From NCBI GenBank assembly GCA_004335835.1, contig RWJK01001657.1:34322-98321 (forward strand): DNA of 64,000 nt. The letters are read 5' to 3'. The position numbers and the translations under genes are program-made. Origin of the DNA: Scenedesmus sp. ARA3 (Eukaryota > Chlorophyta > Chlorophyceae > Sphaeropleales > Scenedesmaceae). Shown here in pieces: positions 744 to 62,835 of the stretch (its first letter is position 1; every line of letters begins with the position of its first letter). A model generated the notes under the pieces. It ran no database searches. It was not told where the DNA came from and was given only the letters and a program-made list of their open reading frames with translations.

Positions 744-3700
744 TCAAACGGCAAGTGCAAGATGCGCAAAGCTCAGTAATTGGTCATCATTCATGCCGCC
801 ATCGGCATCAGCCCATGCGCTGCCCACTGTCACTCTGCCGCCCACCTGCTTCAGTTTCTCTGCAAGCACCGAGATCACGCCCAGCAGCAGCTGCTTCCGC
901 TGGCTGCGGAACAATACTGCAGTGCGCATCTCAGGCGTCAGCTCCTGCTGCTGCTGCGGCTGCGGCTGCTGCTCTTGGGTTTGCCCTGCTTCACTGCTGC
1001 TGCTGCTGCTGCTGCTGCCGTTGAGCAGTGCCAGGTCCTGTTCTAGCCCTGTGCTGAAGTTCTGCAGTGCTGCCATTGCCATGCCAATGAGTATGCGGAT
1101 GGTTGCTGTCTGCAAAGCAGCAAAAAGAATGCTTAAAAATTGAGTGCAAAGGTGGTGCAAGGCGATTCAGTTACAAAGCATTGTATGGCAGGTGGCACAG
1201 CAGGTAGAAGGGTCTGCCGCTTGCACAGGGGCAAAGTCAAGCATGTGCAATACACAGAACCCGCAGGGTCACCCACCTCATTCTGCTTGTTGAGTGGTCG
1301 GTGCCAGCTGCCAAAACAGAGCATGTCACCAAAGCATGCCACCCCAAAGGTCATTATGGCACTGCTGAAAATCGGAGCACTGCCGCACCATCACACTGCA
1401 CACACGGGGTGCGAAAATCCCCTACCTCATTCTGCTTGTTGAGCGGCCGGTCCCAGCTGCCCAGCACTTCCAGTGTCAGCGCATCCATTTCGCTCTGGTA
1501 TGTGGCCACCAGCCCACGCGCTTGGTTAGCATGTCACCCCAGCATGTCACCTCAAAAAGATTACTACGGTACTGTTACAACTCCCGGCTCTGCAGCCTCA
1601 TCATACTGCACACGCAGAGTTACATGCAGAGTCACCCAAAGCCTCTTTTTTACCCACCTCATTTTGCTTGTTGAGCGGCCGGTCCCAGCTGCCCAGCACT
1701 TCGAGCGTCAGCGCATCCACCTCACTCTGGTAGGTGGCCACCAGCCCACGCACCGCAGCCAGCAGCCGCGGCTCAACAAAATTGGGGCCACCCAGCAGCA
1801 CCTGCAGTGCATGCACAACATAGCAGCAGAATTGTATGTTTAAGTGCCAGATTTTATGGGCGGATGCAGGTTCAGGAAGCTTGGGGCCACCAAGCAGCAC
1901 CTGCAGAGCACAAGCATATTGCAGCACATGTTGGCTGGCAGTGTGTGGAGCAGCTGCAGCCAGCAGCCGCGGCTCCACAAAGTTGGGGCCACCCAGCAGC
2001 ATCTACGACACAATTTGCACAATGCAGCACATGTTGGCAAATGGCTGTTTTGGCGGTGTGTTTATGTAGAGCAGCTGCAGCCAGCAGCTGGGCTCCACAA
2101 AGTTGGGGCCACCCAGCAGCACCTATGACACAATATGCACAAATTGCAGCATGTTCACCATGACAAGTTTGCAGTTTGGCGGTTTGGCAGTGTGTTTGCT
2201 TGAAGCAGCTGCAGCCAGCAGGCGCTGCTCAACAGAGTTGGGGCCACCCAGCAGCACCTGCAGTGCACACACAGTGCAGCACATGTTGGCAACGGCGCCT
2301 TGCTACGCACCCAAGCTAAGCACAACCCATACTCTGCCTGCGCACCTGCAAGCTGAGATGAGCAGCAATCGCTGGCAGCTCAAAGCAGCATATTCGCAGG
2401 CAGCCACGCCCCTCATACCATACCTGCAGGTTCTGCTTTGCGCCTCCCCCGCTGAGCCCCAGCTTAGCCAGGTGCTGCTGTCGCCACGGCGCCGCTGCGC
2501 TCAGCTCCAACAGCTTACCACTAGCATCGCGAGCGCCACCCGTCAGGGCAGCAGCCTGCATCGGCGGTACCAGCAGTCAACACAGGTTTGGGGTTTGTTA
2601 GACGATCAAGTGCTGTCAAATCCAGCAGCTGCGGCGAGCATCACGCGCACCGCCAGTCAATGCAGCAGCCTGCATCGACAGTGTCAGCAGCCAAGGCAGA
2701 TGGACATCAGTTTGTTACATTGGCTGTTGCATGCTGCCGCCCGGGCCCTGCCGCACTCAGGTCCAAACGCTTTCCAATAGCATCGCATGCACCGCCAGTC
2801 AACGCAGCAGCCTGCAAACAGCACCAGCAGTCAGCACATGTTTGGGTTTGTTAAATGATCAAATGCGCTCAGCTCCAGCAGCTTGCCGCTCGCGTCACGT
2901 CCACCGCCAGTCAATGCAGCAGCCTGCAAGCAATGTCAGCAATGAAGATGGAGCCCATGTGTTGTGTGTTGTTGTTCCATCAAGGTGTGCTCAGCTCCAG
3001 CAGCTTACCACTGGCGTCACGCACACCGCTGGTCAGGGCAGCCGCCTGCATTAGCGGCATTACAGTCAGCGCAAAAGGTGCCAGTTTGTTGCTCTAAAAG
3101 ATGAGCTCAGCTCCAGTCGGTATCCGCTGGCGTCACGTGCGCCACCGGTTAACGCAGCAGCCTGCATTGGTGGCATCAGCAGTGCGTGCGAATGGCGTCA
3201 GTTTGTTACGTCTGTTGTTACATCAAAGTGTGCTCAGCTCCAGCAGCCTACCACTAGTGTCACGTGCGCCACCGCTCAGTGCGGCAGCTGCATGCATAGT
3301 CACATGGTAAGTGTTAAGCAGTGAGTGAGCATGGACTCTGTGGTGTCGGGCCGCTGCCACACTCCAGCCCCAGCCCCACACTTACCAACTGTCATTCATT
3401 CACAACTGATCAAGCTTTGAAAATCGTGACGCCCGCACCTTGACCAGTTCGATGTCGAAGCGCAGCGCCACTCTGTCGTGCTCGTTATCAGGGCTCACGA
3501 AGCCATAGTCCATGAGCAGGAAGTCGTTGCTGAGCCGCCCATAGCTCAGCAGCAGCGGCTCGCCCACGGCAATCTGATACAGCAGGCAGGCAGCAGGCAG
3601 GTAGGCAGACACACATACACTGATTAACGTAATGTTGATGTGAGGAGTGGTCCAGATCACTGTCTGAGCCATCCGTAGCACAGCAGCAGGGATAAGGCTT

Positions 3701-6700
3701 CAGTTACCAGGTAGCCCCATGCTCGTATACAGCAGGCTGCCCATGCACAAAGTGACAAAGCGAAGTACAATCAACACCATCAGCAGCAGCAGCAGCAGCA
3801 GCCCACCTGCTTCTTTGCCACCATAGCTATTCCTCCCGGCACCGGTACCACCTCACAGTTGGGCTCAAAGCTGAGCCTTGCACCCATTGCTTGCAGCAAT
3901 TCCTCAACCCTTGTTTGCTAGATCACAGCAATGCACTGGCTTGCAGAGATCAGGCTTCACTCCCAAGGTTACAGCACGCTCGAGAACTGCACAGTATGCA
4001 AAATCAAATTACAAATCCAACACCAACAGCAGCAGCAGCAGCCCACCTGCTTCTTTGCGACCATAGCCACCCCTCCCGGCACCGGCTCCACCTCACTGTT
4101 GGGTTTAAGCTGAGCCTTAAACACACTCCCAGCAGGAAACTTGCAACTCATATGTGCCTATGCCACAAAGATGTTTGCCCATGAAGCACACAAGCACCAC
4201 CACCAGCAGCAGCAGCCCACCTGCTTCTTTGCCACCATGGCCACTCCTCCCGGCACCGGCACCACCTCACAGTTAGGCTCAAAACTGTGGTTGGCCATGT
4301 CAATCAGCGGCAGCAGCGCAGCAGGCGCTGCAGGGCCGGCCACCCTGAATGCACGTGACGTCACGACAGCAAGCGCCCAACCTGCAGGCAGTTGGCATAA
4401 AAATGTACACACTTGAGACTGGTATCTATCGTCACACAATCAAAGTGGTCCCGCTGCAAGGTTCTGGCACAGCCGCCGCCCCCAGTGTGATGCGACAGCT
4501 GCTGCGCACCTAAGCTGTTGGTGTCCATTGTCACGCCGTCAAAGGGGTCGGCAACAATCTGGTGCAACAGCAGCTGACACAGCAGCCAACACCAGTGTAA
4601 CAGCAACGTAACAGCTGCTGCGCACCTAAGCTGTTTGTGTCCACTGTCACGCCATCAAAGGCGTCTGCTGCTGAGCATGGACGGTGGCTGCCACGGCCGC
4701 AGTGTATGTCCATCAATCAGCATATAATGCAACAGCTGCTGCGCACCTAAGCTGTTGGTATCCACTGTCACGCCGTCAAAGGGGTCTGCTGCTGTGCCTG
4801 GCAGCTTGGAGAGCACGTCCAGGCTGAAGCGGTGCAGCCAGCGGCCGCGCTTCTTGACCTGCAACAGCAGAGCAGCACACAACAACATGCTTCAGACGCA
4901 GACCAGCGGCTGCAGCACGTCCAGGCTGAAGCGGTGCAGCCAGCGGCCGCGCTTCTTCACCTGCAAAAGCAGCACACAACAACATGCTTCAGACGCAGAC
5001 CAGCGGCTGCAGCACTGCAGTGCGAAGCGGTGCAGCCAGCAGCCGCGCTTCTTGACCTGTAGAAGCAGAGCAGCACACAACAACATGCTTCAGACGCAGA
5101 CCAGCGTCTGCAGCACTGCAGTGCTGAAGCGGTGCAGCCAGCGGCTGCGCTTCTTCACCAGGCCCGCGCAGAACGAGCACAACGTGCCGTAAGCTAGGAC
5201 TCAGGCTATCGAACAACAGGTGTGGCATTGCTCGCCGCGTTTGAGGTCGGCTGCTGTGCAGCAGCCAGCGATGCATGTGAGTTGGCGTTGTCCAGTGCCT
5301 CCTGGAAATACCATCAAAACAACCCATGCCCACTAGCAGCAGCAGGGTTTCAAACTGCCAATACCCACCCAAAGTAACATGCGAAACAACATGCCAGCAC
5401 CAGACACACCTGCTCGACTACTGGCAGGTACCTGATCGCCTCCAGCGCCTCGTGGGGGAAGAACATTTGGCACGCCAGACACGCCCACCAGCAGCTGTAA
5501 CGATCTCATCCGCCAAACAACATCAAAATAACATGGCAAATAACAAAATAACACACCTGCTCCACAACCGGCGGGTACTCGATCGCCTCCAGAGCCTCCC
5601 GGGAAAAAACATCAGCACGCCAGCAAGTCGCGTGAGAAAGCAGCTGCGATCATTCAAAACCTGTCAAGTAACACACAAAAAATGTCATATAACACAGAAC
5701 CCACCTGCTCGACAACCGCCGGGTACTCAATCGCCTCCAGCGCCTCTCGGGGGAAGAGCATCGGCACGCCAGACACGCCCACCAGCAGGTGTGAAATGTA
5801 CGTCGCAAAGTGACTGCCAGGCCCTGCGATTCGCTGAGTCAGCAGCTGCAGTGCCAGCTTGGCGCCCCACAGCTCCTCAGGGACCTGCCACATCAGGCTG
5901 AGCACCCTCAAGAGTACATCCATCAAAAAACACCAAGATGACAAGGAGTGAAAGAATAACACACCTGCTCCACAACCGGCGGTTAATCAATCGCCTCCAG
6001 CGCCTCCCGGGGAAAGAACATCCGCACGCCAGACACGCTCATAAGCAGATACAGGGTTGGCATCCCTCAAATAACATCAAAATAACATGACAAATAACAA
6101 ATTAACACACCTGCTCGACTACCGGCGGGTACTCAATCGCCTCCAGCGCCTCCCGGGGAAAGAACATCGGCACACCAGACACGCCCACCGGCAGGTACGA
6201 AATGTACGTGGCAAAGTGACTGCCAGGCCCTGCGATTCGCTGAGTCAGCAGCTGCAGTGCCAGTTTGGCCCCCCACAGCTCCTCAGGGACCTGCTGCATC
6301 AGGCTGAGCACCCCCACGGAATCGACCCACCAAAACAACATGACAAGTACCAGAATAACGCGTCTGCTCAACTTCTGGCGGTTATTTAATCGCCTCCAGC
6401 GCCTCCGGGATGAAAACATTGGCACACTAGCCATGTCCGCAAGCAGATGCAGGGTTGGCATCCCCCAAATAACACCAAAACAACATGACACGTAACAAAA
6501 TAACATACCTGCTCCACAACCGGCGGGTACTTGATCGCCTCCAGCGGCTCCCGGGGAAAGAACATCGGCACGCCAGACACGCCCACCGGCAGCTGTAACG
6601 ATTTCATCCGCCAAACAACATCAAAATAACATGGCAAATGACAAAATAACACACCTGCTCCACAACCGGCGGGTACTCGATCGCCTCCAGCGCCTCCCGA

Positions 6701-8498
6701 GGGAAGAACATCGGCACGCCAGACACGCCCACCGGCAGGTACGAAATGTACGTTGCATAGTGACTGCCAGGCCCTGCGATTCGCTGAGTCAGCAGCTGCA
6801 GTGCCAGCTTGGCCCCCCAAAGCTCCTCAGGGACCTGCTGCATCAAGCTGAGCACGCGTGCATCGCTGGACTCATCGTAGGTGAGCTGGCAGGCTCTGGG
6901 GAGTTCGATCAAGCGGCTGCCAGGCTGGGTGATGGCCTGTTGTAGCAGCGGGCAGAAGTATGCGGCATAGTATTAGGGTTTGAAGTTGGTGCTTCGAGGG
7001 CTGTGCTCGTCGTACGTGAGCTGGCAGGCCCGCAACAGCTCAATTAGGCGGCTGCCAGGCTGGGTGATGGCCTGCAGCAGCCAGCAACAGCATGCGGCCT
7101 AATGTTAGAGTTCAGAGCGGGTGCTTTTAGATTCTGACTCGTCGTACATGAGCTGGCAGGCCCGTGGAAGCTCGATCAGGCGGCTGCCGGGCTGGATGAT
7201 GGCCTGTGCAGGCAACAATACGAAAACAATATGATGTGTAGGGTTGTGGTTTTAGCAAGTGTGTTTGCACCTTGGCTTGTCGTAGGTGAGCTGGCAGGAC
7301 CGCGGAAGCTCGATCAAGCGGCTGCCAGGCTGGCTGATGGCCTGCGCAGGGTGAGGCATGCAGCAGCAACCAATCGTACATTTCAGCAAGTGTGTCTGCA
7401 CTTTAATTCAATGCAGGTGAGCTGGCAGGCCCGTGGCATTGCAATGAGGCGGCTGCCGGGCTTGCTGATGGCCTGCACAGGCAACAGTACGAAAACAATA
7501 TGAGGTGTAGGGTTGTGGTTTAAGCATGTGTGTTTGCACCTTGACTGGTCGTAGGTGAGCTGGCGGGCCCGCTGTAACTCGATCAAGCGGCTGCCAGGCT
7601 GGCTGATGGCCTGCGCAAGACTTGCAGCAGCAAGCAATTGTATGCCAGGTGCAGTTATAGGCCACTGCTTGTAACTGCTGGCAGCTACACACCGGGGGCT
7701 TGTCATAGCAGGCTGCTGACTCATCACGCATGATTTGTAAGGCCACAAGCATGATTTGTAACGCCACACAAGCCCCAGACAGTTGTTGGAGAGTGTCTTT
7801 CCCCTGCTGCTGCAAATCCAGGCTCACCCACTGCAAAGAGCCTCAACCAAACAACAAACTACGCCATGCATTGGGACACATCTCAGGGCTAGGCTGGGAG
7901 CTACTTCCAGCGTCGCACCTGTGTTGCAACCAGGCCCCAGCCCCAGCCTCCGTCGCTGCCAGGCTGTGCCATTGCACAGTGTCTCAACCAAACAACAATC
8001 AACACCATAACACTGAACTACAGGTTGCAAGTGCTACTAGGCTGGGAGCTGCTGCTGCTGCTGCCGCACCTGAGTTGCAACCAGGCCCCAGCCCGAGCCT
8101 CCATCGCTGCCGCTCAGATTTGCCATTGTTACGCCATTCACAGAGCCGCCATTGGCAACTACCCAGTCCACCAAGGTGTTGCTGCTGCTGCTGCCTGATG
8201 GTGGGCTACCGTCTGCTGCTGTTGCTGCTGCTGCGATGCATCTCCGTGTGGTGCAGCTGAGCTGCAAATAGCCGCTGCTGTGGCTGCTGCTGCTGCTGAC
8301 TGGTGCTGGTTGTGTGGGGTGCCAGTGGTGATATGGATCCCTGCTACTGCTGCTGCGAAGTGTGCTGCACAGCGATGTTGATCTAAGGGCGTTGCAGGCC
8401 AATCGGCCTAGCATCCTGTGCCTGGTTTGGCTGCTGCTGTTGCTGCTGCACGTCAGGGCAGACACAGGCAATGCTAAGCATGCGATTAAACGAGGCAA
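744..8498 (-). CDS. SET-domain protein lysine methyltransferase, RuBisCO LSMT-like, 8 exons
   Basis: Exons in transcript order: 8498-8070, 6936-6655, 4858-4747, 4381-4221, 3573-3439, 2555-2424, 1801-1658, 1109-744; phases join into 586 codons. It would transfer methyl groups from S-adenosylmethionine to a protein lysine. Residues 1-100 are rich in Ser, Arg and Ala and look like an organelle transit peptide; Met at 8414 is an equally good start. The SET domain then opens with LVDWVVANGG and GWGLVAT, continues through VPEELWGAKLALQLL, has the AdoMet-pocket motif LIDMANHS at about residues 300-307 and closes with GEPLLLSYGRLSND and DYGF. The LSMT-type substrate-binding domain follows (exons 6-8, with LGSWDRPLNKQNE and an acidic LEQD motif). 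The family also includes SETD3/SETD6-like enzymes, so RuBisCO or aldolase as substrate is inference. Almost every exon has partial copies of its ends in the flanking introns. Confidence 0.88.
1284..1510 (-). repeat. Downstream copies of SET exon 7 3' end
   Basis: Two incomplete copies of the 3' part of exon 7 (the segment encoding LEVLGSWDRPLNKQNE) with the GTGGGT-like donor lie in the intron after that exon, at about 1284-1320 and 1425-1510. They lack an acceptor of their own and are taken as junction duplications, not coding exons. Confidence 0.8.
1876..2265 (-). repeat. Upstream copies of SET exon 7 5' end
   Basis: About four copies of the exon 7 start (LLGGPNFVEPRLLAA, each behind a TGCAG acceptor) occupy the intron before the intact exon. 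Copy lengths differ and several diverge after 12-15 codons into unrelated intron sequence. Confidence 0.8.
2615..3300 (-). repeat. Upstream copies of SET exon 6 5' end
   Basis: Six further copies of the acceptor plus the first roughly 20 codons of exon 6 (AALTGG-RDASGKLLELS) are spaced about 115-130 bp apart upstream of the intact exon at 2555-2424. Each keeps the sequence TGCAGGCTGCTGC or a close variant at the junction, and none continues into the second half of the exon. Confidence 0.85.
3798..4115 (-). repeat. Downstream copies of SET exon 4 3' end
   Basis: Two copies of the segment encoding CEVVPVPGGVAMVAKKQ, each followed by the GTGGGCTGCTG donor region and a (CTG)n run, lie at about 4045-4115 and 3798-3880, downstream of intact exon 4. 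Confidence 0.8.
4425..4680 (-). repeat. Downstream copies of SET exon 3 3' end
   Basis: Three copies of the segment encoding DPFDGVTVDTNSLG and its GTGCGC donor sit at about 4635-4680, 4510-4555 and 4425-4445, the last much shortened and diverged. Confidence 0.78.
4905..5175 (-). repeat. Upstream copies of SET exon 3 5' end
   Basis: Three copies of the acceptor and first codons of exon 3 (VKKRGRWLHRFSLD) precede the intact exon at 4858-4747, spaced about 100 bp. The copy nearest 5150 has lost the consensus AG acceptor. Confidence 0.78.
5400..6590 (-). repeat. Downstream copies of SET exon 2 3' end
   Basis: A large intron array repeats the end of exon 2. Long copies, from PEELWGAKLALQLL through GVSGVPMFFPREALEAIEYPPVVEQ, occur around 5700-5900 and 6110-6310. 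Shorter copies of the last 20-30 codons lie around 5400-5480, 5555-5610, 5960-6030, 6360-6420 and 6500-6590. All end at a GTGTGTTA-like donor. Several copies carry frameshifts or substitutions. Confidence 0.82.
6990..7620 (-). repeat. Upstream copies of SET exon 2 5' end
   Basis: Five copies of the acceptor plus the first 20-odd codons of exon 2 (AI-QPGSRLIELPRACQLTYD) lie at about 7005-7070, 7140-7205, 7275-7345, 7415-7475 and 7545-7615, upstream of the intact exon at 6936. Spacing is roughly 130-140 bp. Confidence 0.85.
7895..7970 (-). repeat. Downstream copy of SET exon 1 3' end
   Basis: A single diverged copy of the end of exon 1 (GLVAT region plus donor) lies in intron 1, about 130 bp from the intact exon end at 8070. 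Confidence 0.6.
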
Positions 8499-9262: not shown

Positions 9263-12232
9263 ATGGTTCGCTTCCATTGGCATGTTGAGGATGGCTTCGG
9301 GGCCTACACACCGCCTCAAGCTTCTAAGGAGGCCCCTGGCAGCTCCGGGGTGCGGCACGTGTCGGTGCAGGTAGAAATACCGGGCGAGTCCAGCCCTATG
9401 CAAGCCCTCTTCACCATCCCAGCGGGTTACTTGCACCCTGAGGGAGGGAAAGTCAAGGACGTTGGCATTGTGCTGGGCCATGGCGAGAACGCAGAGGATT
9501 GGGACGGCCAACTGCTTTCAGAGGTTGCCGTGACTCTGGCCAAGGCTGGTGAGCAGCAGCAGGAGCAGCCAGTGCAGTGTGCTGTGCTGCAACTGCCACA
9601 GCTGTCGCTGCCGCTGCTATGGCAGTGGTTGGCTAGGCATTGCTTGCACCGCTAGCAGTCTGGTGATTGATCAGAGCTGGTAGCCACTAGCACCCAGCAA
9701 GGATTTGTGACCAGGCATGCTTTCAGTTGATGGCTCGCTCTCTCAACTCAGCCCCTCAGGGCCTGAGCTGAGTACAGCGTGCCGAGCTTGAGTTGCTGCA
9801 GCTGCTGTTGCCAGTGGTGCAGAAGGCTGCTGGCGAGCTTGCACAGGAGATGCCTACTTGCCTTTTTGCTTCACAGCATGCAACTGCAGCAGCAGCAGCT
9901 GATCGGGCGCATAACAGCACGTTGACTGCAGCTGCTCCCAACCTGCTGGTAGCACTGCTGGGATGGTCGTCAAACATGTGCACATACGCAGAGTAGGTGC
10001 CTGTGCTGCAGCCCACACTGGGCCGTGCAATCGCAGCACAGCAGAAAAACTTTTGCAGCAACACATATGAGAAACTCACAATGGTCATGGGGCACCTCTC
10101 TGGCAGCTGCAGCGCAGATGCACAAGTTCATATTTTTTGAACCATGTGTTCCCCTCGCTGCAGCTCAAACTGCCTCCAGGTGGTGCCCTTACCCACTTGC
10201 ATCTGTAACAAGTCAACCAAACAACTAAACCCAACCCATCACATATGTCTGCATCTGTTGTGCTTGCAGGATACATCGTGGTGCGCTACCACAGCGCAGC
10301 AAAGGAGCTGCGGCGCCAGCGCATGTTTGAAAAGGCGCTGGACGTGTGCGCCACCAGTCCCTACGCACGCTGTGTGCAGCGCTGGGTGCTTGCAGGAATC
10401 GGCCACGGGGCGAGGCTAGCAGCAATTGTGGGGCCCAGGGCGCGCGGGCACGTGTGTGGCTACGTGTTCCTGTCGTACCCGCTCACGGTGAGTACGATAG
10501 AAGCCTAAAAGCAGTGGAAGCAGCTTGCAGGATGTTTCGACACAGGGTCCAGGCAATGGCAGCAGCTGGGATGTGGAAGGCATTCACAGCCGTAGTTCAT
10601 TGATGGTGAAGGCAGTTGTGGCAGCCGAACGGTCGTCTGCTGGGCGTGCCCATGCAGCGGTAGTTCGGGACATGCTTACACGAGCACTGCCGCCTGAGCT
10701 ATGCCGCAAAAGGGGCGCATCGTACGAAATGTACACGAGCTGCGCAGCTAGCCCAAATTTTTTGAACCAGGACGAATCCAGAATGTCTTGCTTGTACAGA
10801 AGCGTGGTACAACCATGTGGCTGCACACCGGCTGCTTTTAGTTGCTGATGCATGCCCCAACCGTCTTGTCACAATTTGACCGTTACTGTTGTTGTTGCTG
10901 CTTTCTTTGCCTCATTGCATATCCTGCAGGACTCGCTGCAGACAGCCAAGGGACCTGTGCTTCCAGACAGCAGCATCCTGCTGCTGCGCATCCCGGCCCC
11001 CGTGCTGTTCATACACGGCGGTGCGTTTGACTAGTCAACTCAACCAGCAATGCTTGGCAGGCGCAGCAGCTGTTGCAACGCAGAAAGCCACGTCCGTTGG
11101 TCTGTTGTGAAAGAGGTATCAGCTGGTTTGCATGCGTGCATCACCAGCATTGTTGGCAGGCGCCTGTGTTGGCGTTGCCAATGCAGCAAGGCACTTGTGT
11201 CTGTGCACACACACGTGCAGCGGCCTCAACTTGTGACCTCATCATGGTATCCTTATCCTTGCCGTGGCACATACCGTCTAAGATGGCGCCAGGACAGGAC
11301 CCACCTGTAACTACACTCTTGTCCGTCTGCTGCTGCTGACAACGAGATTGCATCTTGCTGTGTGAGCAGGCAAGGACCTCTCGGCCCCAGCCAGCCAGGT
11401 CCGCACAGTAGCAGCACAAATGAAGCCATCAGCAGAGCCTCGTCTCGTTGAGGTGCCAGATGCAAACGGCAGCTTTCAAACTGGCGAGCCCGCAGCACTG
11501 CAGCCGGAAAGCATTGCAGCAGTGGCGGAGCCTGTGTTGGAGTTCGTGAATGCGTTACATAGCGGCAGCGTGGGCTCATGCAAGCTGCCGCTGGCAAACC
11601 CACCAGGCCAGGGGGCGGTGCAGCTCTCAGAGTCTGCCGCTGCAGGCATCGCAGCACAAATTGCCATCTTAGATGAGGATGACACGCTCATCTATGAGGT
11701 AGAGCCGCTCGGGAGTGTAGCGGATGCAGCGGCGGTCAACGGGCAGCAGCAGGCGGCCGCGGCGCAGCAGCTGCTGCAGCGGCACGCGCAGATGCAGCTG
11801 CAGCAGGCGCTGGCGGCGCAGCAGCAGCTGGCGGCGGTGGTGGCGTCCAAGGCGGGCCTGCACCTACAGCAGGCGGCAGCGCAGCGTGCGGCGGCGGCTG
11901 CAGGAAGTGCTGCTGCGGCTGGTGCATTGCAGCAGAGCTTTGGCATACAGCTCAGCAAACTTCCTGGTGCTGCTGCAGCTGCTGCTGGTGGTGCACAGAG
12001 CGCTGGTGCTGTGGTGGCGCCTGTGATGCTGTCCGGGGTTCCTGCAGGAATCTTGACTGGGGGCCTGACCCCGCAGATGCTGGCAGCAGCGCAGGCGATG
12101 GCAGCGGCAGCAGCAGCAAAGCAGGGGATCAGGCCTGGCGGCGGCACACAGCTGGTGATGCCTGCGGGTGCAGGGGCACCGGCGGCGCAGCAGCAGCAGC
12201 AGCAGCAGCAAGAAGCGGATGAAGGACAGTAG
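9263..12232 (+). CDS. KANL3/TEX30-type alpha/beta-hydrolase-fold protein, probable pseudoenzyme
   Basis: Exons 9263-9548, 10270-10487, 10930-11020 and 11370-12232 join in phase to 486 codons. Residues 90-200 follow the TEX30/KANL3 pattern: the beta strand GIVLGHG, the GYIVVRY strand, AGIGHGARLAA where the nucleophile elbow should be, YVFLSYPL, and VLFIHGGKD carrying the acid. The elbow has Gly where the family enzyme has Ser, and the position of the catalytic His (DANGSFQ) has Gly, so hydrolase activity is unlikely. In animals KANL3 is a scaffold of the NSL histone acetyltransferase complex; a chromatin role here is inference. The last exon adds a roughly 200-residue tail rich in Ala and Gln with no fold I recognise. 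Start chosen at the first ATG of a frame that runs directly into the conserved strand. Confidence 0.72.
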
Positions 12233-15659: not shown

Positions 15660-16248
15660 CATGCGTTGATGTCATGGGTTGTGCGGCGGCTTGTGCTGGA
15701 CGACTTTGCTTATCACAGATTGCTTTGTTTGTTGGGGCCAGGAACCTTTGAGTGTGGTCGGCGACGTAGTGCCACAAAACGCTGAGGGGTTCTCACTGCC
15801 CCCGTACGCTGTGCGGCGGGAGATCTGCAACTTTTGCTTTTCAGGATCGCATTCTTTGAGCCTGGGGTGTTACTGATCATGATGCGATAGTTGTTATGAC
15901 AGCTGTTACGACAGCTGTTATGACGTTGTCTTAGACACAAACCATTGGAGGCGGGTCTTGCCGCAGCATTTGAAAGGGCCTGCAGTGTGCCGCTTATTAC
16001 AGGCCTGTGTCAGCTTGCTGCTGCAGCAGGCTGCATTTCTTAAAGCACTTGTGTTGTGATTGCTGTTGCTTTTATTGCTGGGGTGTGCCCAGACAGACAG
16101 AGAAAGACATGCTGGCTGGGTTGGTTGCGGTCAGCCTTATTGTTGTGTGGCGTGGCGTCACCGATGTGGAGTTTGCACATTTTGGGTGCTTGCAGATGGG
16201 ACTGTTGCATTGGGAACCCTCAGGCACGCATTGGCAGTGAGGACAGTG

Positions 16249-36690: not shown

Positions 36691-36760
36691 GCCAGTGACT
36701 GCCAGAGCAACAGCACCTGCCAGCTGCGCATAAAGCACACCAGTCAGGCTAAAAGCACAG

Positions 36761-48400: not shown

Positions 48401-51400
48401 CAGATGCAAGCGGCTGGCGGGCTGAGGGCAGTAGTCCCAGGGCAGGCCATGCCAACTGCTGTTGCTGGGCTGGATTCGCGGGGCACGCACATTGACTTTG
48501 CGGATCTGGAGCTGCGTCGTGTGATTGGCACGGGGCAGTTTGGGCTGGTGCGAGTGGTGCGGCATGTCAAGACAGACGAGGTGTTTGCGCTCAAGGTGAG
48601 CTATTGCTGAATTACTGCACAAAGTTCACGTACTGTCTGTGTGGCTGTGGGGGTTGGGCCGGTGCGAGATGTGAAGAAGGATGAAGTGTTCGCGCTGAAG
48701 GTGAGCTGTCGCTGAAACACAACACCAAGAGCATTTTTTCTGTGTCCTGGCTGTGAGGTTTGGGCTGGTGCGGGTGGTGCGGCATGTCAAGACAGACGAA
48801 GTGTTTGCACTCAAGGTGAGCTATTGCTGAATTACAGCACGATCAACGTGCGCTGTCTCTTTGTTGTTTGGTTTGGGCTGGTGCGAGTGGTGCGGCATGT
48901 CAAGACAGATGAAGTGTTTGCGCTCAAGGTGAGCTAGCGCTGGATCAACGCACACAGACAATGCGGCTGTCACTTGGGCTGGTGCTGGTGGTGATAGATG
49001 TCAGGACAGACGAGGTGTTTGCGCTCAAGGTGAGCTATTGCTTAATTACAGCACGATCAACGTGTGCTGTCTCTTTGTTGTATGGTTTGGGCTGGTGCGA
49101 GTGGTGCGGCTTGTCAAAACAGACGAAGTGTTTGCGCTCAAGGTGAGCTGTGACTGAATTACAGCACAAAGAACATGCGGCTGTCTCTTTGGTTGTAATG
49201 CTTGGGCTGGTGCGGGTGGTGCGGGTGGTGCGGGTGGTGCGGCACGTCAAGACGGACATGCCCATGCTCATGTTATCTGCTTTGTCGCAGGTGATGCGCA
49301 AGGCGCCGCTGGTGGAGGCGAAGCAGATTCAGCAAGGGGCCCCGTCTGCACACACCCTTCTCAGCCGCGTGCCTGCCTACTTGATTTGGAACATCTGTCA
49401 TTTCCCCGCAGGTGATGCACAAGGCCCCACTGGTGGAGGCGAAGCAGATCGAGCACGTGGTCAATGAGCGGGCCATCCTGGGGGAGCTGCAGCACCCGTT
49501 CTTAGTTGGGCTGGTTGGGGCATTCCAGGACGCGTCAAGCCTCTACCTGTTGCAGGTGCGTGTTTCACCAGAGTGAAGTGTTGCCTCATTCTTCTTCCTT
49601 CTGTTGTTGGCTGGGAGCTGCCGCGTCGACGAGCCGCTGCTGGCAGGTCCCACCTGGCATTGCTGCTTTGACGTTGGTTCGTGATGTGTGAGCTTTGTGT
49701 CGCATGATGGGTCCTGGGGGAGCTGCAGCACCGGTGGGGCTGGTGGGCGCCTTCCAGGGCGCCACAAGCCTCTACCTGCTGCAGGCGAGTGCAACACTTG
49801 AGATGAAAGCAGAAGTTGATTAGAGCAGTGTTTTGGTGTCTTTTTGAAGCTGCAGCACCCCCTCAAACTGTCATGTTCATTTGATGGTTGGTTAGATCTT
49901 GTTACTGTTCTGTTACGTTGTGCAGGAGTGGGTGCCTGGCGGCGAGCTGTTCCACCACCTGGACATCGAGGGCTCCTTCAGTGACGCCTCAAATCAACAC
50001 CAATATAACGTGTCATATCATGCTACACTCTTGTTACATCATCTTGTTACTTTTCCGTCACATTGTGCAGGAGTGGGTGCCTGGCGGCGCCGCTCCACCA
50101 CCTTGACACCGAGGGCCCCGCCCCTCCTGGCGCGTCGTTTTCAACACCAACATAACATGTCATATCATGGTACATATTGTTACACCTTGTTACTTTTCTG
50201 TTGCTTCCTGCAGGAGTGGGTGCCTGGCGGCGAGCTGTTCCACCACCTGGAGATTGAGGGCTCCTTCAGCGCTGTGCTTCCGTCCCAGAAATCATAAGAT
50301 GTTACACGTAGCTTACTATAAAGTTACATCTTGTCATTTTCTGTCACTTTTTGCAGGAGTGGGTGCCTGGCGGCGAGCTGGTCCACCACCTTGGCATCGA
50401 GGGCCCCGCCCCTCCTGGCGCGTCGTTTTCAACACCAACATAACATGTCATATCATGGTACACATTGTTACATCTTGTTACTTTTCTGTTACGTTTTGCA
50501 GGAGTGGGTGCCTGGCGGCGAGCTGTTCCACCACCTGGACATTGAGGGCTCCTTCAGTGACGCCACGGCCTGCTTCTATGCGGCCAACGTGCTGCTGGCC
50601 ATGGAGTGCCTGCACGCGCGCGGCATCGTGTACAGGGACTTGAAGCCAGAGAACCTGCTGCTGGACACGCAGGTGGGATTCTGTGTTTGTGTGCCATGAC
50701 ATGTGGTGTGTGATTGTCTTTGTTGTGCACGAGGCATCGTGTACAGGGATCCCAAGCCGGAGAACCTGCTGCTAGACACGCAGGTGGGTGGATGGAGCGT
50801 GGATATTGCTTTGTGTGGTCATGTTGGGTTTTAGATGTAGACAGGTCTTTGGGTGCTCAGTGCACAGGGATTTGAAGCCAGAGAACTTGCTGCTGGGCAC
50901 GCAGCTGGGTTTTGGTGTGCGTTTGTGTGCCCTGACATGCAGTTCGCTGCTGGCCATGAGTGCCTCCATGCACGGGGCATTGTATACAGGGACCTCAAGC
51001 GGTAGAACCTGCTGCTGGACACGCAGGTGGGTGGGACGGCAGCGTTGTTCTTGTGCTATGTTCATTTGGATGTACGCATATCCCTGGGCACCAAGTGTAC
51101 AGGGATGTCTAGGCGTAGAACCTGCTGCTGGACACGCAGGCGAGACAAGCTGACGTGAATGCTGTGGTTCTTGGTGTTGTATTGCTTATTACGTCCTTGG
51201 GCATTGTGTACAAAGACCTCTGGCAGGAGAACCTGCTGCTGCACACGGAGATGGGTGGGACTGGAACGTTGCGGGCCTGTATGCGTACCACACTGCGTTG
51301 ACTGCTAAGCATGCAGCTGGTGAGACGACGTGACGTTGGCACTGCCCACGTACACATAGCAAATCACTGGTGTTGCGCACACAAGTCGTGGCAACTAAAC

Positions 51401-51724
51401 CAAACATGCATATGCTGCCCTTTTTTTCGCCCTTTTGTCTTTTTGTTTTCCCCGCAGGGCTACATCAAGATGGCCGACTTTGGCTTTGCCAAGAAGATTG
51501 GCAGCGAGCGCACCTTCACCATTTGCGGCACACCAGACTACCAGGTGGGCCGCTGCCCGGGGTTTTGGCTCAATCATCAGCAGGGTTCACCAGCAGGGTT
51601 TTACAAGGTTGCAATGCCTTTGGCTCCGTGATCTGCACTGTCAGGTGCTTGAGCAACGCCATGACTGATGAGACCTGCTGCTGCTGCCTGGCTGCTCATG
51701 CCACATGCCTGCGCGCTGCAAACT

Positions 51725-51768
<44 letters not shown>

Positions 51769-52398
51769 GCTGCTGCTGCCAGGCGCCTGAGGTCATCATG
51801 CGGCGCGGCACCACGCGCGCAGCAGACTACTGGGCGCTGGGCGTGCTGGTGTTTGAGATGCTGGTGGGCGACCCGCCCTTCAAGAGCCTGACAGGTGCGG
51901 TATAACTGTGGTTTGTCTATATGTTATATAAGTGTTATTTGACTACTGGGCGCTGGGCGTGCTGGTGTTTGAGATGCTGGAGGGCGACCCGCCCTTCAAG
52001 AGCCTCACAGGTGCGTTATAACTGTGGTTTGTCTATGTTATAACTGTTTTAGGACTACTGGGCGCCCAGCGTGCTGGTGTTTGAGATGCCGGTGGGCGAT
52101 CCGCCCTTCAAGAGCCTCACGGTTGTGTCGTCTGCATGACTTGGAGCCATTTTACACACTGATCGAATTGTTTGGTGCTGCTTGCATACAAGGATGAAGG
52201 GATGTGGTTGCCACAATGCTGATTCTTTGCCGCGATTCCTCGGCTTTGCAAGTGCATACTCACCAAGCGGCTGAAGGGGCAGTATAGTAGCAGGTCATGT
52301 AGCTCGCAGAGACGGTGTGCCACCAGCGTTGTGTGCTGCACATGCATGATCAGACTGCGACAGTGCTCAACTTGATCTGATTAAGACTGTATTGTGCT

Positions 52399-52431
<33 letters not shown>

Positions 52432-52547
52432 TGCTGCCAGGTGACCCCTGGGACACCTTCAGGCGCACACTGTCTGGCCGCTTCTACGTGCCGCACTTCA
52501 TCACCGACGCGGCAGCAGACCTCATCTTCAAGCTGCTGCAGGTGGGC

Positions 52548-52583
<36 letters not shown>

Positions 52584-52733
52584 AGTGTTTGTGCCTGTTG
52601 CTGGCTTTGCTCATTCGCTGTGTTGCTGCGACTGTGAAGCTGTTGCCGTGGGCTGCGGATGCCAGCGATGTCAAGCTGCTGCTTGCCCCAGCGCAAGACC
52701 TCGGCCATCTCTCACACCCTGCAACGTTGCCGC

Positions 52734-52823
<90 letters not shown>

Positions 52824-53149
52824 AGGTCAACCCGGAGAAGCGTCTCGGCTGCGGCCCCAGCGGCATCGCCGAAATCAAAGCCCACCGCTGGTTCTCCCGC
52901 ATCAACTGGGACGCGCTGGCAGCCAAGCAGCTGCCTGCCCCGATCCAGCCGCGCCTAAAAAGCCTGCTGGACACATCAAACTTTGACGATTTCGATGATG
53001 CTGAGTCAGACGGCCAGATGAAGGGACACATGGGTGGGCTTGCGGCGGCTGGAGCAGCTGGGGCGGCTGGGGGCGATAAGGGTGTGGTGGTGTGGGACAC
53101 GTGGCAGTGGATCGGCGGCGGCACGCAAGGGGCGGGCGGGATGTGGTGA
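39487..53149 (+). CDS. cGMP-dependent protein kinase (PKG), four cyclic-nucleotide domains, 21 exons
   Basis: Exons: 39487-39566, 39704-39791, 40317-40709, 41134-41270, 42156-42273, 42591-42744, 43594-43811, 44505-44645, 45123-45260, 45692-45840, 46164-46221, 46407-46559, 47072-47209, 47655-48015, 48219-48595, 49412-49555, 50502-50672, 51458-51544, 51783-51894, 52441-52541, 52826-53149. Phases agree throughout; 1213 residues. The N-terminus MGCTQS fits N-myristoylation at Gly2 and palmitoylation at Cys3. A Pro/Ala-rich linker leads to four CNB domains (about 260-395, 397-515, 525-650, 655-775). The first three have phosphate-binding cassettes with Arg followed by Thr or Ser (PRTAS, LRSAD, TRSAY), the pattern linked to cGMP. 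The fourth lacks this Arg. A Gln-rich linker precedes an AGC kinase (about 870-1200): GTGQFG loop, Lys in [32 protein letters not shown], then the AGC tail. This resembles apicomplexan and ciliate PKGs. Confidence 0.94.
41340..41565 (+). repeat. Downstream copies of PKG exon 4 3' end
   Basis: Two copies of the segment encoding [18 protein letters not shown] plus the donor (GTAAG or GTGAG) lie at about 41350-41412 and 41505-41565, after the intact exon end at 41270. Confidence 0.88.
41619..41787. repeat. Two short hairpins in PKG intron 4
   Basis: Arms GCGCCTGGCA (41620-41629) and TGCCAGGCGC (41650-41659) form one stem. CATTGTTGTGCTTGCTC (41735-41751) and its exact complement (41770-41786) form a second with an 18-base loop. 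The segment lacks the CAG-rich composition of its surroundings. Confidence 0.8.
41920..42095 (+). repeat. Upstream copies of PKG exon 5 5' end
   Basis: Two copies of the acceptor plus codons for [16 protein letters not shown] lie at about 41924-41975 and 42027-42080, before the intact exon at 42156. Both retain TGCAG or CGCAG acceptors. Confidence 0.87.
42790..43205 (+). repeat. Downstream copies of PKG exon 6 3' end
   Basis: Three copies of the segment encoding [21 protein letters not shown] lie at about 42795-42862, 43030-43102 and 43155-43212. The first two keep the GTGAGC or GTGGGT donor. The last is diverged and frame-shifted. Confidence 0.86.
43395..43545 (+). repeat. Upstream copies of PKG exon 7 5' end
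   Basis: Two copies of the CATGCAG or GTGCAG acceptor plus codons for [14 protein letters not shown] lie at about 43397-43430 and 43495-43540, about 98 bp apart, before intact exon 7 at 43594. Confidence 0.85.
43935..44295 (+). repeat. Downstream copies of PKG exon 7 3' end
   Basis: Two long copies of the segment running from [19 protein letters not shown] to RFVRK, the first starting at 43940 and the second at about 44195, follow the intact exon end at 43811. The first copy's donor has changed from GTGAGA to GCGAGA. Confidence 0.88.
44726..44841. repeat. Intronic foldback, miRNA-precursor-like
   Basis: GTAGGTGCAGATGCTGCTC (44726-44744) pairs exactly with 44823-44841. Inside, ATCACCCTT (44748-44756) pairs with AAGGGTGAT (44811-44819) and GGAAAGTCA (about 44774-44782) with TGACTTTC (44803-44810), leaving a 20-base loop. 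A T run follows the right arm. It lies in PKG intron 8. Confidence 0.87.
44872..45045 (+). repeat. Upstream copies of PKG exon 9 5' end
   Basis: Copies of the acceptor plus codons for [11 protein letters not shown] lie at 44876 and 45003, before intact exon 9 at 45123; spacing is about 120-127 bp. Confidence 0.84.
45320..45700 (+). repeat. Copies of PKG exon 9 3' end and exon 10 5' end
   Basis: A copy of the exon 9 end ([13 protein letters not shown] plus GTGCGC) lies at about 45327-45372. A copy of the exon 10 start (VVVLRKRDF, then diverging) lies at 45568-45612, upstream of the intact exon at 45692. Both occupy the same intron 9, one from each side. Confidence 0.85.
46300..46345 (+). repeat. 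Upstream copy of PKG exon 12 5' end
   Basis: The acceptor CAACTGCAG with codons related to [15 protein letters not shown] is repeated about 105 bp before the intact exon at 46407. The copy has a premature TAG. Confidence 0.8.
46736..46812 (+). repeat. Downstream copy of PKG exon 12 3' end
   Basis: A nearly perfect copy of the codons from [23 protein letters not shown] plus the GTAAGG donor follows the intact exon by about 245 bp. Confidence 0.88.
47486..47540 (+). repeat. Upstream copy of PKG exon 14 5' end
   Basis: An acceptor followed by [12 protein letters not shown] codons lies about 170 bp before intact exon 14 at 47655. Confidence 0.82.
48650..49260 (+). repeat. Downstream array of PKG exon 15 3' end, about six copies
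   Basis: The segment encoding [18 protein letters not shown] with its GTGAGCTATTGCTGAATTAC intron start is repeated after the intact exon end at 48595. Copy donors fall at about 48702, 48816, 48929, 49030 and 49143; a sixth, partly expanded copy is at 49200-49255 with GTGCGGGTG repeated within it. Spacing is 101-114 bp. Confidence 0.92.
49290..49340 (+). repeat. Upstream copy of PKG exon 16 5' end
   Basis: GTCGCAG followed by codons for [13 protein letters not shown] precedes the intact exon (49412) by about 120 bp. Confidence 0.86.
49710..49790 (+). repeat. Downstream copy of PKG exon 16 3' end
   Basis: Codons for LGELQH, then [15 protein letters not shown] with small deletions, follow the intact exon end (49555) by about 230 bp. 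Confidence 0.82.
49925..50430 (+). repeat. Upstream array of PKG exon 17 5' end, four copies, 144-bp period
   Basis: The acceptor plus codons for [21 protein letters not shown] start at 49926, 50071, 50214 and 50358, with the intact exon at 50502, so the period is 143-145 bp throughout. Copies 2 and 4 share damage (GAGGGCCCCGCCCCTCCTGG), implying that a two-unit block was itself copied. Confidence 0.93.
50735..51255 (+). repeat. Downstream array of PKG exon 17 3' end, five copies
   Basis: The segment encoding [17 protein letters not shown] and donor is repeated after the intact exon end (50672), ending near 50782, 50908, 51026, 51140 and 51250. Later copies accumulate stops and lose the GT. 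Confidence 0.9.
51935..52120 (+). repeat. Downstream copies of PKG exon 19 3' end
   Basis: Two copies of the codons for [23 protein letters not shown] lie at 51940-52010 and 52053-52122. The first retains the GTGCG donor and the TATAACTGTGGTTTGTCTAT intron start; the second has lost the donor. Confidence 0.9.
52735..52825 (+). repeat. (CTG)n run ending in the acceptor of the last PKG exon
   Basis: An almost uninterrupted run of about 29 CTG/CTGC units ends CTGCTGCAG directly at the exon 21 acceptor, so the repeat takes the place of the polypyrimidine tract. Similar shorter runs precede exons 19 (51725-51780) and 20 (52400-52438). Confidence 0.95.
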
Positions 53150-58363: not shown

Positions 58364-60009
58364 CAGTGTAGATTATGACGGCACTGGTAATGCAGCAGAC
58401 GGAGAAGAGGAAGATGTGTCACATGGCAGCGCCAGTCATCACACCCAGGAGCAGCAGGAATCTCCTAATGCTGCTGCAGCAGCTGCTGCTGCTGCTGCTG
58501 CTGCTGCTGCAGCAGCTGCTGCCACAGCCGTGGCCGCTGCCTTCACACGCATTAAACCTGTCAGCCAGGCAGTAGCAGCAGCAGCAGAGTCATCAGAGCT
58601 TCTTGGTGCCTCGGCCGATTCCACCCCTCTGGCAGCAGCAGCAGATGCAACAGCAGACACAGCAGCAGATACAGCAGCAGCAGCTGAGGCAGCAGCAGAT
58701 GCAGCAGCAGATGCAGCAGCAGCCGAGGCAGCAGCAGCCGCAGCAGCCGGGCTGTCGCTTGAAGTAGGCCAGCAGGGTGTGGCAGCGCCACAGCTGTGGC
58801 TGCTGCATTTGCAGGCAGCAGCAAGGTACCGCAGCCCGTTGCTGATCAGTGCGGCTGAACTTTGTGCAGGGTGCTTGCGTCAAGAGCCTGAAGCAGCAGC
58901 AGCAGCAGCGGATGCAGATGCGGATGCAGACTCAGCTGGTATTGAGCCGGAAACAGCTGCAAAAGCACCAGCACCAGCACCAGCAGCAGCAGCAGCAGCA
59001 GAGGCGGATGCAGAGGAGTCAATCTCAGCTGGGGTTGTAAGAAAAGCAGCAGCCGCAGCAGCAGCAGGTTCAGCAAGTGTTACCCTTGCTGCTACTGCTG
59101 GCGGTGGCGGTGGGGCCAGCAGCAGCAGCAGCAGCGCTGGCGCATGTGCTGGCGGGCTGGGCGTGTGTGAAGTTGCTGCTGCTGCTGATGTGACTGAGAA
59201 GGGGCTGTGCTTGTGCGAAGATGCCTTTCCAGGGACGCTCAGCATCCTGGAAGGTGAGCCTTTTTCGAGCAATGCAACTTGCTGGGATGTGGTTACACAT
59301 GCTTGCTATTGCTGCTGGTGTGACAGAGAAGAGGCGGTGCTTGTGTGAGACGCCTTTTCAGGCACCCCCAGCTTCCCCAAAGGTGATCACAAGCAATGCA
59401 ACTTGCTGGGATGTGGTTACACATGCTTGCTATTGCTGCTGGTGTGACAGAGAAGAGGCGGTGCTTGTGTGAGACGCCTTTTCAGGCACCCCCAGCTTCC
59501 TGGAAGGTGAGCCTTTTTCGAGCAATGCAACTTGCTGGGATGTGGTTACACATGCTTGCTATTGCTGCTGGTGTGACAGAGAAGAGGCGGTGCTTGTGTG
59601 AGACGCCTTTTCAGGCACCCCCAGCTTCCCCAAAGGTGATCACAAGCAATGCACAACAGTACTACTGTTGTAGTACATGCTGGGATGTGATGCGGCATGT
59701 TTGTGTGTGTTTCAGCAGGCACAAAGCACAGCACAAGCTGTTGCAGCAAGATTATGCTCACTGCATGACATGCTGTGTATACGCTGTGTTTTTCTGCTGC
59801 TGTGTGCCGGCGCTTGTCCCTCTGGAGGTAAAGCAGAGCAGCTGCTGCTGTCCCTGTACAAACAGCCGGATGCGCAGCAGCGGCAGCAGCGCCGCAGCAA
59901 GCGGCGCAAGCAGTGGCGGGGCACACAGCAGCGCAAGAGAGCGAAACGTACAGCAGCTGCAGCAGCTGGCCCTGTTGCAAGCCCTTGTAACAGCCCTTGT
60001 AGTGGTGAC

Positions 60010-60189: not shown

Positions 60190-60239
<50 letters not shown>

Positions 60240-61477: not shown

Positions 61478-61526
<49 letters not shown>

Positions 61527-62835
61527 AGTGCAGGCCTGGCTGCAGCAGCTGCAGGCGGAGCACTTGGTTGATCATGAGCATGCTAGCGTGCATTGGGACG
61601 GCTTCAGGCTTGCTGTGATGGGCTCGCAGCTGGCCTACCTGGCGCGGGAGCTGCAGCTGCACGTGAGTTTGAATATTGCTATATTGTCGTTGGTGTTGGT
61701 GACACGTTATGTTTCCCCCTGGCATGAGAATGGCTTCAGGCTTGCTGTGATGGGCTCTCAGCTGGCCTACCCGGTGCGGGAGCTGCAGCTGCACGTGAGC
61801 TTGAATTCTGTCATTGCGTCGTTTTTACTTTGACGACAAAGTGTGTTGTAGGCTCTCAGCTGGCCTACCTGGCGCGGGAGCTGCAGCTGCACGTGAGTCT
61901 GAATGCTGCCATTATGTCATTGCTATCTTGACAAATTATGTGATGGGCTCGCAGCTGGCATGCCTGGTGCGGGAGCTGCAGCTGCATGTGGGCAAATTAT
62001 GTTATGGTGTCATAAGTATGTTAGTGACCACTATGTGGCTGCAGTGAGGCTTCAGGCTTGCTGTGATGGGCTCTCAGCTGGCCTACCTGGCGCGGGAGCT
62101 GCAGCTGCACGTGAGTTTGGATTCTGTCATTCTGTCATTTGTATGTTCTGACAACATATGTGATGGGCTCGCAGCTGGCCTACCTGGTTCAAGAGCTGCG
62201 GCTGCACATGAGGTTGAATTCTGTCATTCTGTCATTTTCATTTTGACAACAAAGTATGTGCTGGGCTCTCAGCCACTGCACGTGAGTTTTAATTGTGTCA
62301 CGTTGTTTTAACTATGTTTGTGACAAACTATGTATTGGGCTGAAAGCTGGCCCACCTGGCGCAGGAGCTGCAGCTGCACGTGAGTTTGATGCATAACTAG
62401 GAGAAACACTTTGGTGTGAGTTTGAACTTTGTTGTAGTATGATATTACCAGGGGGTATTTACATGCGGGTCCTGGCACCATCTCAGACTGTTTGAGCTGC
62501 AGCAGGCGACCAGAAAGTAAAGCGAGTGATCACCATATAACCCCTGCGCTGCTGCTGCTGCTGCTGCCATATTTGTTGCAGGTGCCTGCTGCGGTGGTGC
62601 TGGAGGCCATGGCTGCTTGATCACTCACACACCGCGCTCCTGCTGCTCCTGCTGCTGCTGCTGCTGCTGCCTCTTTATTGTTGCAGGTGCCGGCTGCTGT
62701 GGTGCTGGAGGCCATGGTTGCTTACGTGGCAGCAGCAGATGCCGTGGCAGCGCAGCATGTGGGGATCAGCGGGGGCTACCCTGCTAATTTGGATGGCATC
62801 ATCGCAGCACGGCGCTGGCCGACTGCGTTGAACAA
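55896..62835 (+). CDS. Giant Ala/Gln-rich protein of unknown function, 3' end not found
   Basis: Exons 55896-59253, 59828-61662 and 62687-62835 join in phase and encode about 1780 residues; the reading frame is still open at 62835 (phase 2). Most of it is Ala and Gln runs from CAG-type repeats. Ordered-looking islands are few: WQSPQEQVQQLTQRLQEMEDA (about residue 530), LQTDDFKAHLRQWRWQ, an acidic patch near EEDVSHGS, the basic RRSKRRKQWRGTQQRKR (about 1140, a likely nuclear signal), a long acidic DE/Ala region, then EVQAWLQQLQAEHLVDHEH and the C-terminal HWDGFRLAVMGSQLAYL and VPAAVVLEAMVAYVAAAD. A nuclear regulatory protein is a guess from composition. Met 55896 opens the frame. Exon junctions are multiply duplicated. 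Confidence 0.55.
59260..59660 (+). repeat. Tandem copies of exon 1 3' end in two alternating forms
   Basis: After the exon end at 59253 a unit of 124-129 bp, running from VTEKRRCLCETPFQ-type codons through a donor to GCAACTTGCTGGGATGTGGT, is repeated three times. Donor contexts alternate: GTGAGCCTTTTTCG, GTGATCACAAG, GTGAGCCTTTTTCG, GTGATCACAAG. A roughly 250-bp dimer has therefore been duplicated. Confidence 0.93.
60008..60103 (+). repeat. (CAG)n run in coding sequence
   Basis: An almost pure run of about 32 CAG codons encodes polyglutamine within exon 2 of the giant protein, closely followed at 60192-60238 by a run of GCA codons for polyalanine. Confidence 0.95.
61700..62385 (+). repeat. 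Downstream array of exon 2 3' end, about seven copies
   Basis: The segment encoding FRLAVMGSQLAYLARELQLH and its GTGAGTTTGAATTCTGTCAT intron start recurs after 61662, with copy ends near 61797, 61893, 61988, 62111, 62208, 62283 and 62380. Spacing is about 95-135 bp, and later copies are shortened. Confidence 0.92.
62575..62625 (+). repeat. Upstream copy of exon 3 5' end
   Basis: A (CTG)n run, TTGTTGCAG and codons for VPAAVVLEAMAA, then a stop, lie about 105 bp before intact exon 3 at 62687, which has the same (CTG)n and acceptor. Confidence 0.9.

What the first reader, a model, noticed from the sequence alone, without database searches (positions are those of the whole stretch)
744..62835. 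Exon-intron junctions are duplicated outward across the window, under one positional rule
In the SET, unknown-family, kinesin, DENR, PKG and giant genes, introns contain partial copies of neighbouring exons. Every copy I could place obeys one rule: 5'-end copies (with acceptor) lie upstream of the intact exon, and 3'-end copies (with donor) lie downstream. I counted over 30 junctions affected and found no exception. Tandem duplication of 95-200 bp segments spanning a splice junction would produce exactly this, because the extra copy lands in the intron and leaves the reading frame intact, whereas duplications inside exons would be removed by selection. The result is introns full of decoy splice sites, and an intron-growth process I do not know as a described genome-wide mode.
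Basis: partly seen in the sequence, partly recalled or inferred. Interest (0 to 1): 0.93.

Follow-up and report, generated by a model that had tools for sequence, protein, structure and literature searches.

The report
Partial exon copies lengthen algal introns
In several genes of a freshwater green alga (Tetradesmus obliquus or a very close relative) introns have grown by repeated head-to-tail duplication of short stretches spanning an exon's end, so that dead partial exon copies line up on the outer side of each intact exon.

Summary
In eight genes I probed 115 exon ends; 39 carry partial copies in the flanks. Of 93 copies reaching the exon end, 92 obey the rule (55 of 3' ends downstream, 37 of 5' ends upstream); one weak CAG-rich match breaks it. 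None was inverted at this threshold. On other contigs 22 of 26 matches obey; the other four stem from one mispredicted exon. The rule follows from the geometry of tandem duplication. Copies show no coding constraint, intact exons do. Annotated T. obliquus PKG proteins lack copy sequence. Arrays make up 13-80% of intron bases in hit genes; without them introns average 189-319 bp. The effect is uneven: two window genes have none (introns about 510 bp), and 8 of 52 sampled loci elsewhere have any. Unexplained: exon-derived parts of copies are far better kept than adjoining intron-derived parts, beyond simulated decay, and no spacing is below 94 bp. Exchange with the intact exon is a candidate, not shown. 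A new variant of a known kind.

The parts
39544..53149 (+). PKG-like gene (cyclic-nucleotide-binding domains + protein kinase); 17 exon ends affected, 36 copies; arrays 55% of the intron bases measured
   Evidence: Pfam on P0001, 99% to T. obliquus P0001/P0002, counts; gene start inferred from P0001
48219..48595 (+). intact PKG exon whose 3' end + donor is repeated downstream
48661..49142 (+). five 3'-end copies with donor GTGAGC, units about 101-115 bp
50502..50672 (+). intact PKG kinase exon with copies on both sides
49926..50407 (+). four 5'-end copies (acceptor + first part of exon 50502-50672), units 143-145 bp
50727..51250 (+). five 3'-end copies of exon 50502-50672
43594..43811 (+). intact PKG exon with 5'-end copies upstream (43276-43540) and 3'-end copies downstream (43933-44067, 44194-44292)
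51941..52120 (+). two 3'-end copies of exon 51783-51894
744..6936 (-). SET / Rubisco-LSMT-like gene (modelled exons; first exon lies further upstream); 8 exon ends affected, 31 copies; arrays 77% of intron bases
   Evidence: Pfam PF00856, PF09273
5410..6592 (-). seven 3'-end copies of exon 6655-6936 (downstream in gene sense)
7000..7615 (-). 5'-end copies of exon 6655-6936 (upstream in gene sense; five in the scan)
1869..2257 (-). 5'-end copies of exon 1658-1801; 3'-end copies lie at 1277-1519
2611..3293 (-). 5'-end copies of exon 2424-2555
36510..37534 (-). DENR (SUI1) gene, second and third exons with copies; two copies (36684-36631, 36566-36510) are of the terminal exon's stop-codon end, so not splice junctions
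   Evidence: Pfam PF01253
25554..32520 (-). kinesin gene, lightly affected: 4 exon ends, 5 copies; also the one weak exception
   Evidence: Pfam PF00225
20885..24518 (+). gene without Pfam match; 4 exon ends, 6 copies (e.g. 22662-23098)
59173..59629 (+). young array: three 3'-end copies of the exon ending at 59253, intron parts up to 100% identical
61722..62379 (+). six 3'-end copies of exon 61483-61662; one 5'-end copy (62582-62618) of exon 62687-62839
9263..12231 (+). abhydrolase-like gene (label by eye) with no copies (negative)
13405..15660 (+). gene with no copies (negative)

Best explanation
These are tandem duplications of segments mostly about 94-260 bp long, each running from inside an exon across its end into the intron, often duplicated again into arrays. 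Because the extra unit falls outside the intact exon the message is unchanged and the duplication can persist; a unit inside an exon would change the protein. The copies have no coding role and decay; their net effect is longer introns. Shown: direct orientation, side, exon/intron make-up, neutral pattern in copies against constraint in the intact exon, share of intron length. Inferred: the duplication event itself, the filtering by selection, and that splicing uses the intact exon's sites (supported by annotated proteins, no RNA was seen). Not covered: the better preservation of exon-derived parts and the 94-bp floor.
For: 92 of 93 end-reaching copies on the side that tandem geometry requires; 22 of 26 on other contigs, the other 4 from one wrongly predicted exon start; no inverted match over 120 exon ends; among 88 exon-overlapping alignments no whole-exon copy and none inside an exon. 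TRF reports head-to-tail arrays with periods of 97-406 bp over the same places. Intron part of the unit homologous in 47 of 78 neighbouring pairs, 98-100% in some young pairs. Private changes of copies: 62 silent, 126 replacement, 2 stop against 55.5 silent expected; 21 frame-shifting against 3 in-frame gaps; changes placed on the intact exon 21 silent, 1 replacement (86 copies, earlier exon bounds). Removing arrays brings mean introns of six hit gene stretches to 189-319 bp, near the means of 230-302 bp printed for four other green algae against 462 bp for T. obliquus (PMC5966456 Table 1, passage seen).
Against: Passive decay after duplication does not give what is seen. Exon-derived parts are 0.89 identical to the intact exon (86 copies) and 0.85 to each other (105 pairs), the adjoining 40 intron-derived bases 0.67 and 0.67 (unrelated baseline 0.58; exon above intron in 21 of 21 groups, earlier bounds). 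Simulated decay gives 0.85 against 0.83-0.84 between copies, and settings with enough indels to bring introns to 0.65-0.67 put about 6-7 times too many gaps into the exon parts. Softening this: in 33 pairs picked by their intron match the gap is small (0.84 against 0.88). Random placement also predicts intron-only and intergenic duplications; few were found. The two spared genes have long introns too (means 504 bp over 3 introns and 515 bp for 1), so arrays are not the only source of long introns.
Confidence: 0.85

Rival explanations
1. Tandem duplication plus local exchange: the intact exon, fixed by selection, keeps overwriting (gene conversion) or crossing over with its partial copies, so exon-derived parts stay alike while intron-derived parts drift apart.
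For: Step in identity at the splice junction, repeated on other contigs (0.91 against 0.66, 22 copies); neutral pattern of private changes; mismatches within copies somewhat clustered (263 close pairs against 207.5 expected, 76 copies). Site patterns among exon parts do not fit one tree: 83 of 148 informative pairs incompatible against means of 16-26 in tree and 8-18 in star simulations, 0 of 300 runs reaching 83 in each of six settings; copies alone 55 of 82, 1 of 200 runs; after trimming doubtful inner ends 49 of 76 against means of 10-17, with 0, 4 and 0 of 300 runs reaching it. Intron parts show no excess (118 of 350 against 206 of 531 simulated).
Against: By fraction instead of number, star-shaped histories reach the observed 0.56 in 111, 87 and 154 of 300 runs, though with far fewer informative sites. 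The rise of incompatibility with distance vanished after trimming (898 of 2000 permutations), so recurrent mutation at hot sites is not excluded. Homology of 30-60 bp is short for conversion (recalled). Identity does not fall toward the junction edge as conversion tracts would suggest. Odds lowered from 0.40 to 0.35 on re-reading the star fractions.
Confidence: 0.35
2. Copies are functional alternative exons or splicing decoys kept by selection.
For: Exon parts and splice dinucleotides well kept (GT 43 of 53, AG 33 of 37).
Against: No codon-level constraint, 21 frame-shifting gaps; copies lack the other exon end; dinucleotide retention near the in-copy control of 0.76; T. obliquus PKG proteins and a related protein lack copy sequence.
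Confidence: 0.07
3. A junction-targeted process: duplication is initiated at splice junctions or exon ends rather than at random.
For: With exons and copies masked, 31 of 39 remaining repeat pairs in introns adjoin a copy or exon end; of ten intergenic stretches (16.9 kb) two hold repeats.
Against: With units of about 120 bp and short ancestral introns most random placements span an exon end (my estimate, about 3 to 1, not computed in a call); intron-only pairs decay on both sides and are harder to see; stop-codon ends are copied too (DENR, 2 copies).
Confidence: 0.12
4. Assembly artefact or mobile introns (introners).
For: Repeats in a draft of 1567 contigs.
Against: Copies differ by about 10-15% and recur in 8 loci on other contigs; of 51 introns searched against 59 other blocks and each other there were 4 cross-gene matches, 3 of them to kinesin loci from a stretch holding a kinesin exon copy.
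Confidence: 0.03

Closest known systems
Intron gain by tandem genomic duplication (AGGT model; review PMC3443670, passages seen; Hellsten 2011 and Gao and Lynch 2009 as cited there)
   Same: Short tandem duplication within a gene, tolerated because splicing removes one copy.
   Different: There an exonic segment with a proto-splice site makes a new intron. Here a real exon-intron boundary is duplicated and an existing intron grows.
[quoted passage not shown]
   Same: Tandem duplication around splice signals alters gene structure.
   Different: Few cases, exonic, changing intron position; no arrays and no growth of existing introns in the passages seen.
Tandemly duplicated, mutually exclusive exons (for example Dscam; PMC3236188, start of abstract seen in a listing)
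   Same: Exon copies beside the exon.
   Different: Those are whole alternative exons; here copies are partial and show no coding constraint.
Minisatellite-like tandem arrays with concerted evolution (recalled)
   Same: Head-to-tail units, higher-order duplication of two units.
   Different: The unit contains the end of a living exon, which stays fixed by selection and may act as a master copy.

Membership tests
Tandem repeat array | head-to-tail direct copies at similar spacing | tested here: met
   92 spacings, 95-688, median 124; no inverted match at threshold
Intron gain by tandem genomic duplication | duplicated exonic segment becomes a new intron | tested here: not met
   none of 88 exon-overlapping alignments lies in an exon; they lie in the flanks of the source exon
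Intron gain by tandem genomic duplication | short tandem duplication inside a gene that leaves the message unchanged | tested here: met
   (protein-level evidence, for PKG only)
Mutually exclusive exon duplication | whole-exon copies with both splice sites | tested here: not met
   0 of 88 alignments cover a whole exon
Mutually exclusive exon duplication | copies under coding constraint | tested here: not met
   62 silent of 190 private changes against 55.5 expected; 21 frame-shifting and 3 in-frame gaps
Introners | one sequence shared by many unrelated introns | tested here: inconclusive
   4 cross-gene matches among 51 introns against 59 blocks, none introner-like; small sample
Concerted evolution by gene conversion | copies exchange sequence (non-tree-like site patterns) | tested here: inconclusive
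   excess incompatibility in number, but star-history fractions similar and no distance effect after trimming

The most novel reading that the evidence does not exclude
Intact exons act as master copies: their intronic partial copies, which have no coding role, are repeatedly rewritten from the exon (by DNA conversion, or even from spliced RNA/cDNA, which would explain why similarity drops at the splice junction), while the intron parts of the same units drift apart. Copies closer than about 94 bp are purged because they compete with the true splice site, so the floor measures the reach of splice-site competition.
Probability: 0.25. Interest if true: 0.8.

Novelty: new variant of a known kind. 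Interest (0 to 1): 0.6.

Why it matters
How introns lengthen without transposons is, to my knowledge, poorly documented. Here one genome shows a readable record: in five of the six hit gene stretches with introns measured, 27-80% of intron bases (13% in kinesin) lie in arrays seeded at exon ends, and taking them out leaves 189-319 bp per intron. The arrays also give natural tests of how splicing picks the true site among near-identical ones, and of whether exons can homogenise their own debris.

Tried and rejected
Self-training gene finder: ran away into hundreds of tiny exons; replaced by fixed splice profiles and hand-picked coding stretches. The first scans used some exon bounds off by 1-15 bp; the count was repeated with corrected bounds, and searches use those. 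The first codon test mixed neighbouring copies and suggested a silent excess in copies; with each copy confined to its own stretch it disappeared. Idea that copies are complete mini-exons with AG and GT at their inner ends: not borne out on reading the inner ends. Idea that incompatibility grows with distance between sites: withdrawn after trimming. Rows left out: profile and unit tests dropped groups with misplaced ends and short exon parts; (threshold 24, CAG cut 0.45) gave 26 matches, of which I set aside 4 ('5end down', all at C850, exon start predicted at 751 although the kinesin match begins at about 667). CAG-rich matches were discarded in all scans and not counted. Literature: nine searches listed no paper that by title or abstract describes exon-end arrays in introns; only open-licence PubMed Central papers are held, so this does not show that none exists. 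Passages seen: PMC5966456, PMC9860276, PMC3443670, PMC2891723; other papers only as listings with the start of the abstract.
Full report
What it is. The window lies in an 87-Mb, 1567-contig genome. Its PKG gene encodes a protein 99% identical to annotated Tetradesmus obliquus proteins, so this is T. obliquus (Scenedesmaceae) or a very close relative. No ribosomal RNA test was answered.

Observation. I modelled eight genes (checked) and probed 115 exon ends with up to 60 bp of exon plus 6 bp of intron against the flanks of that exon, up to the neighbouring exons. 39 ends have copies. 92 copies reach the end and obey the rule, two lie on the right side without reaching it, and one weak CAG-rich match breaks it. 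No inverted copy passed the threshold over 120 ends, though a 34-nt inverted piece sits in a hairpin. One shuffle per flank gave no match (earlier bounds), and among 88 exon-overlapping alignments there is no whole-exon copy and none inside an exon (earlier bounds). Copies per affected end: 17 ends have one, the most is seven; 10 of 29 affected exons are hit at both ends.

Why the rule holds. If a segment from inside an exon into the intron is duplicated in tandem, the intact exon is always the inner partner and the partial copy the outer one. The rule is evidence for tandem duplication, not an independent law. Dispersed copying would have put copies on both sides and in both orientations.

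Elsewhere in the genome. In 52 kinesin and kinase loci on other contigs, 26 matches were found at 267 counted exon ends (exons under 30 bp were counted but not searched); four come from a wrongly predicted exon start and were set aside; the other 22 obey the rule, at 10 ends in 8 loci. This sample favours long exons and has at most 1.5 kb of flank, so it is probably a lower bound; the window looks richer than average. Within the window the abhydrolase-like gene and the gene at 13405-15660 have none, and of ten intergenic stretches two hold repeats.

Copies are dead, exons alive. Changes private to one copy split 62 silent, 126 replacement, 2 stop, with 55.5 silent expected; codon positions 58, 60, 72; gaps 21 frame-shifting and 3 in-frame. 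Where at least two copies agree against the intact exon, the change is silent in 21 and replacement in 1 (86 copies, earlier bounds). Two T. obliquus PKG proteins, and a 79% identical EukProt entry named like a transcript reading frame (species not named), contain no copy sequence.

Effect on introns. Arrays from the exon end to the outermost copy make up 55% of intron bases in PKG, 77% in SET, 55% in the no-Pfam gene, 80% in the one intron measured in the giant gene, 27% in DENR, 13% in kinesin and none in the two spared genes. Without arrays mean introns are 235, 189, 315, 202, 319 and 241 bp. Against this, the spared genes have introns of 504 (mean of 3) and 515 bp (one) without any array. 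A published table gives a mean intron of 462 bp for T. obliquus and 230-302 bp for four other green algae (PMC5966456, passage seen).

What simple decay does not explain. Within a copy the exon-derived part is much better kept than the intron-derived part beside it, with the drop at the junction (earlier bounds), also on other contigs (exon above intron in 21 of 22 copies). Simulated passive decay with the same kind of detection does not reproduce this at the observed low rate of gaps in exon parts. Two results soften it: in 33 pairs chosen by their intron match the difference is small, and intron parts are detectably homologous in 47 of 78 neighbouring pairs, so duplication of whole units is well supported. 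Exon parts show more non-tree-like site pairs than simulations without exchange, which points to exchange among copies and exon; but star-shaped histories give a similar fraction and the expected growth with distance is absent once doubtful ends are trimmed. I leave this open.

Spacing. The 92 window spacings are all 95 bp or more (median 124; remainders modulo 3 are 33, 34 and 25) and the 22 elsewhere run from 94 to 168, though the scan could have seen shorter ones. I infer either a limit of the duplication process or removal of closer copies that compete in splicing.

Verdict. What is new, as far as my searches reach, is the scale, the exon-end seeding in several genes of one alga, and the unexplained preservation step.

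Noticed in passing
window 23987-24159: Near-perfect long hairpin (54-nt arms 100% complementary, inner 29-nt arms 93%) in an intron; one arm holds a 5'-end exon copy (24131-24170), the other an inverted one. Looks like a recent fold-back duplication.
   Followed up: partly
window 44722-44845 and 41722-41799: Two further inverted repeats (35-nt arms at 89%; 39-nt arms at 85%) in PKG introns, possibly small mobile elements or fold-back events.
   Followed up: no
window 16165-17478: Intergenic minisatellites with units of 20-75 and about 175 bp; the shorter units have no counterpart among the exon-end arrays counted.
   Followed up: no
window 55887-61830: Very long open stretches rich in CAG/GCA repeats (giant gene), with one perfect run of about 31 triplets.
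   Followed up: no
window 63040-63770: Local direct repeats near the end of the window (72-75% identity).
   Followed up: no
window 44645-44646: Probable GC-AG intron (donor GC) in the PKG gene.
   Followed up: no
window 48822-49084 and 50120-50490: The strongest intron matches link every second unit (94% at 214 bp, 98% at 288 bp), so recent duplications probably copied two units at once.
   Followed up: partly
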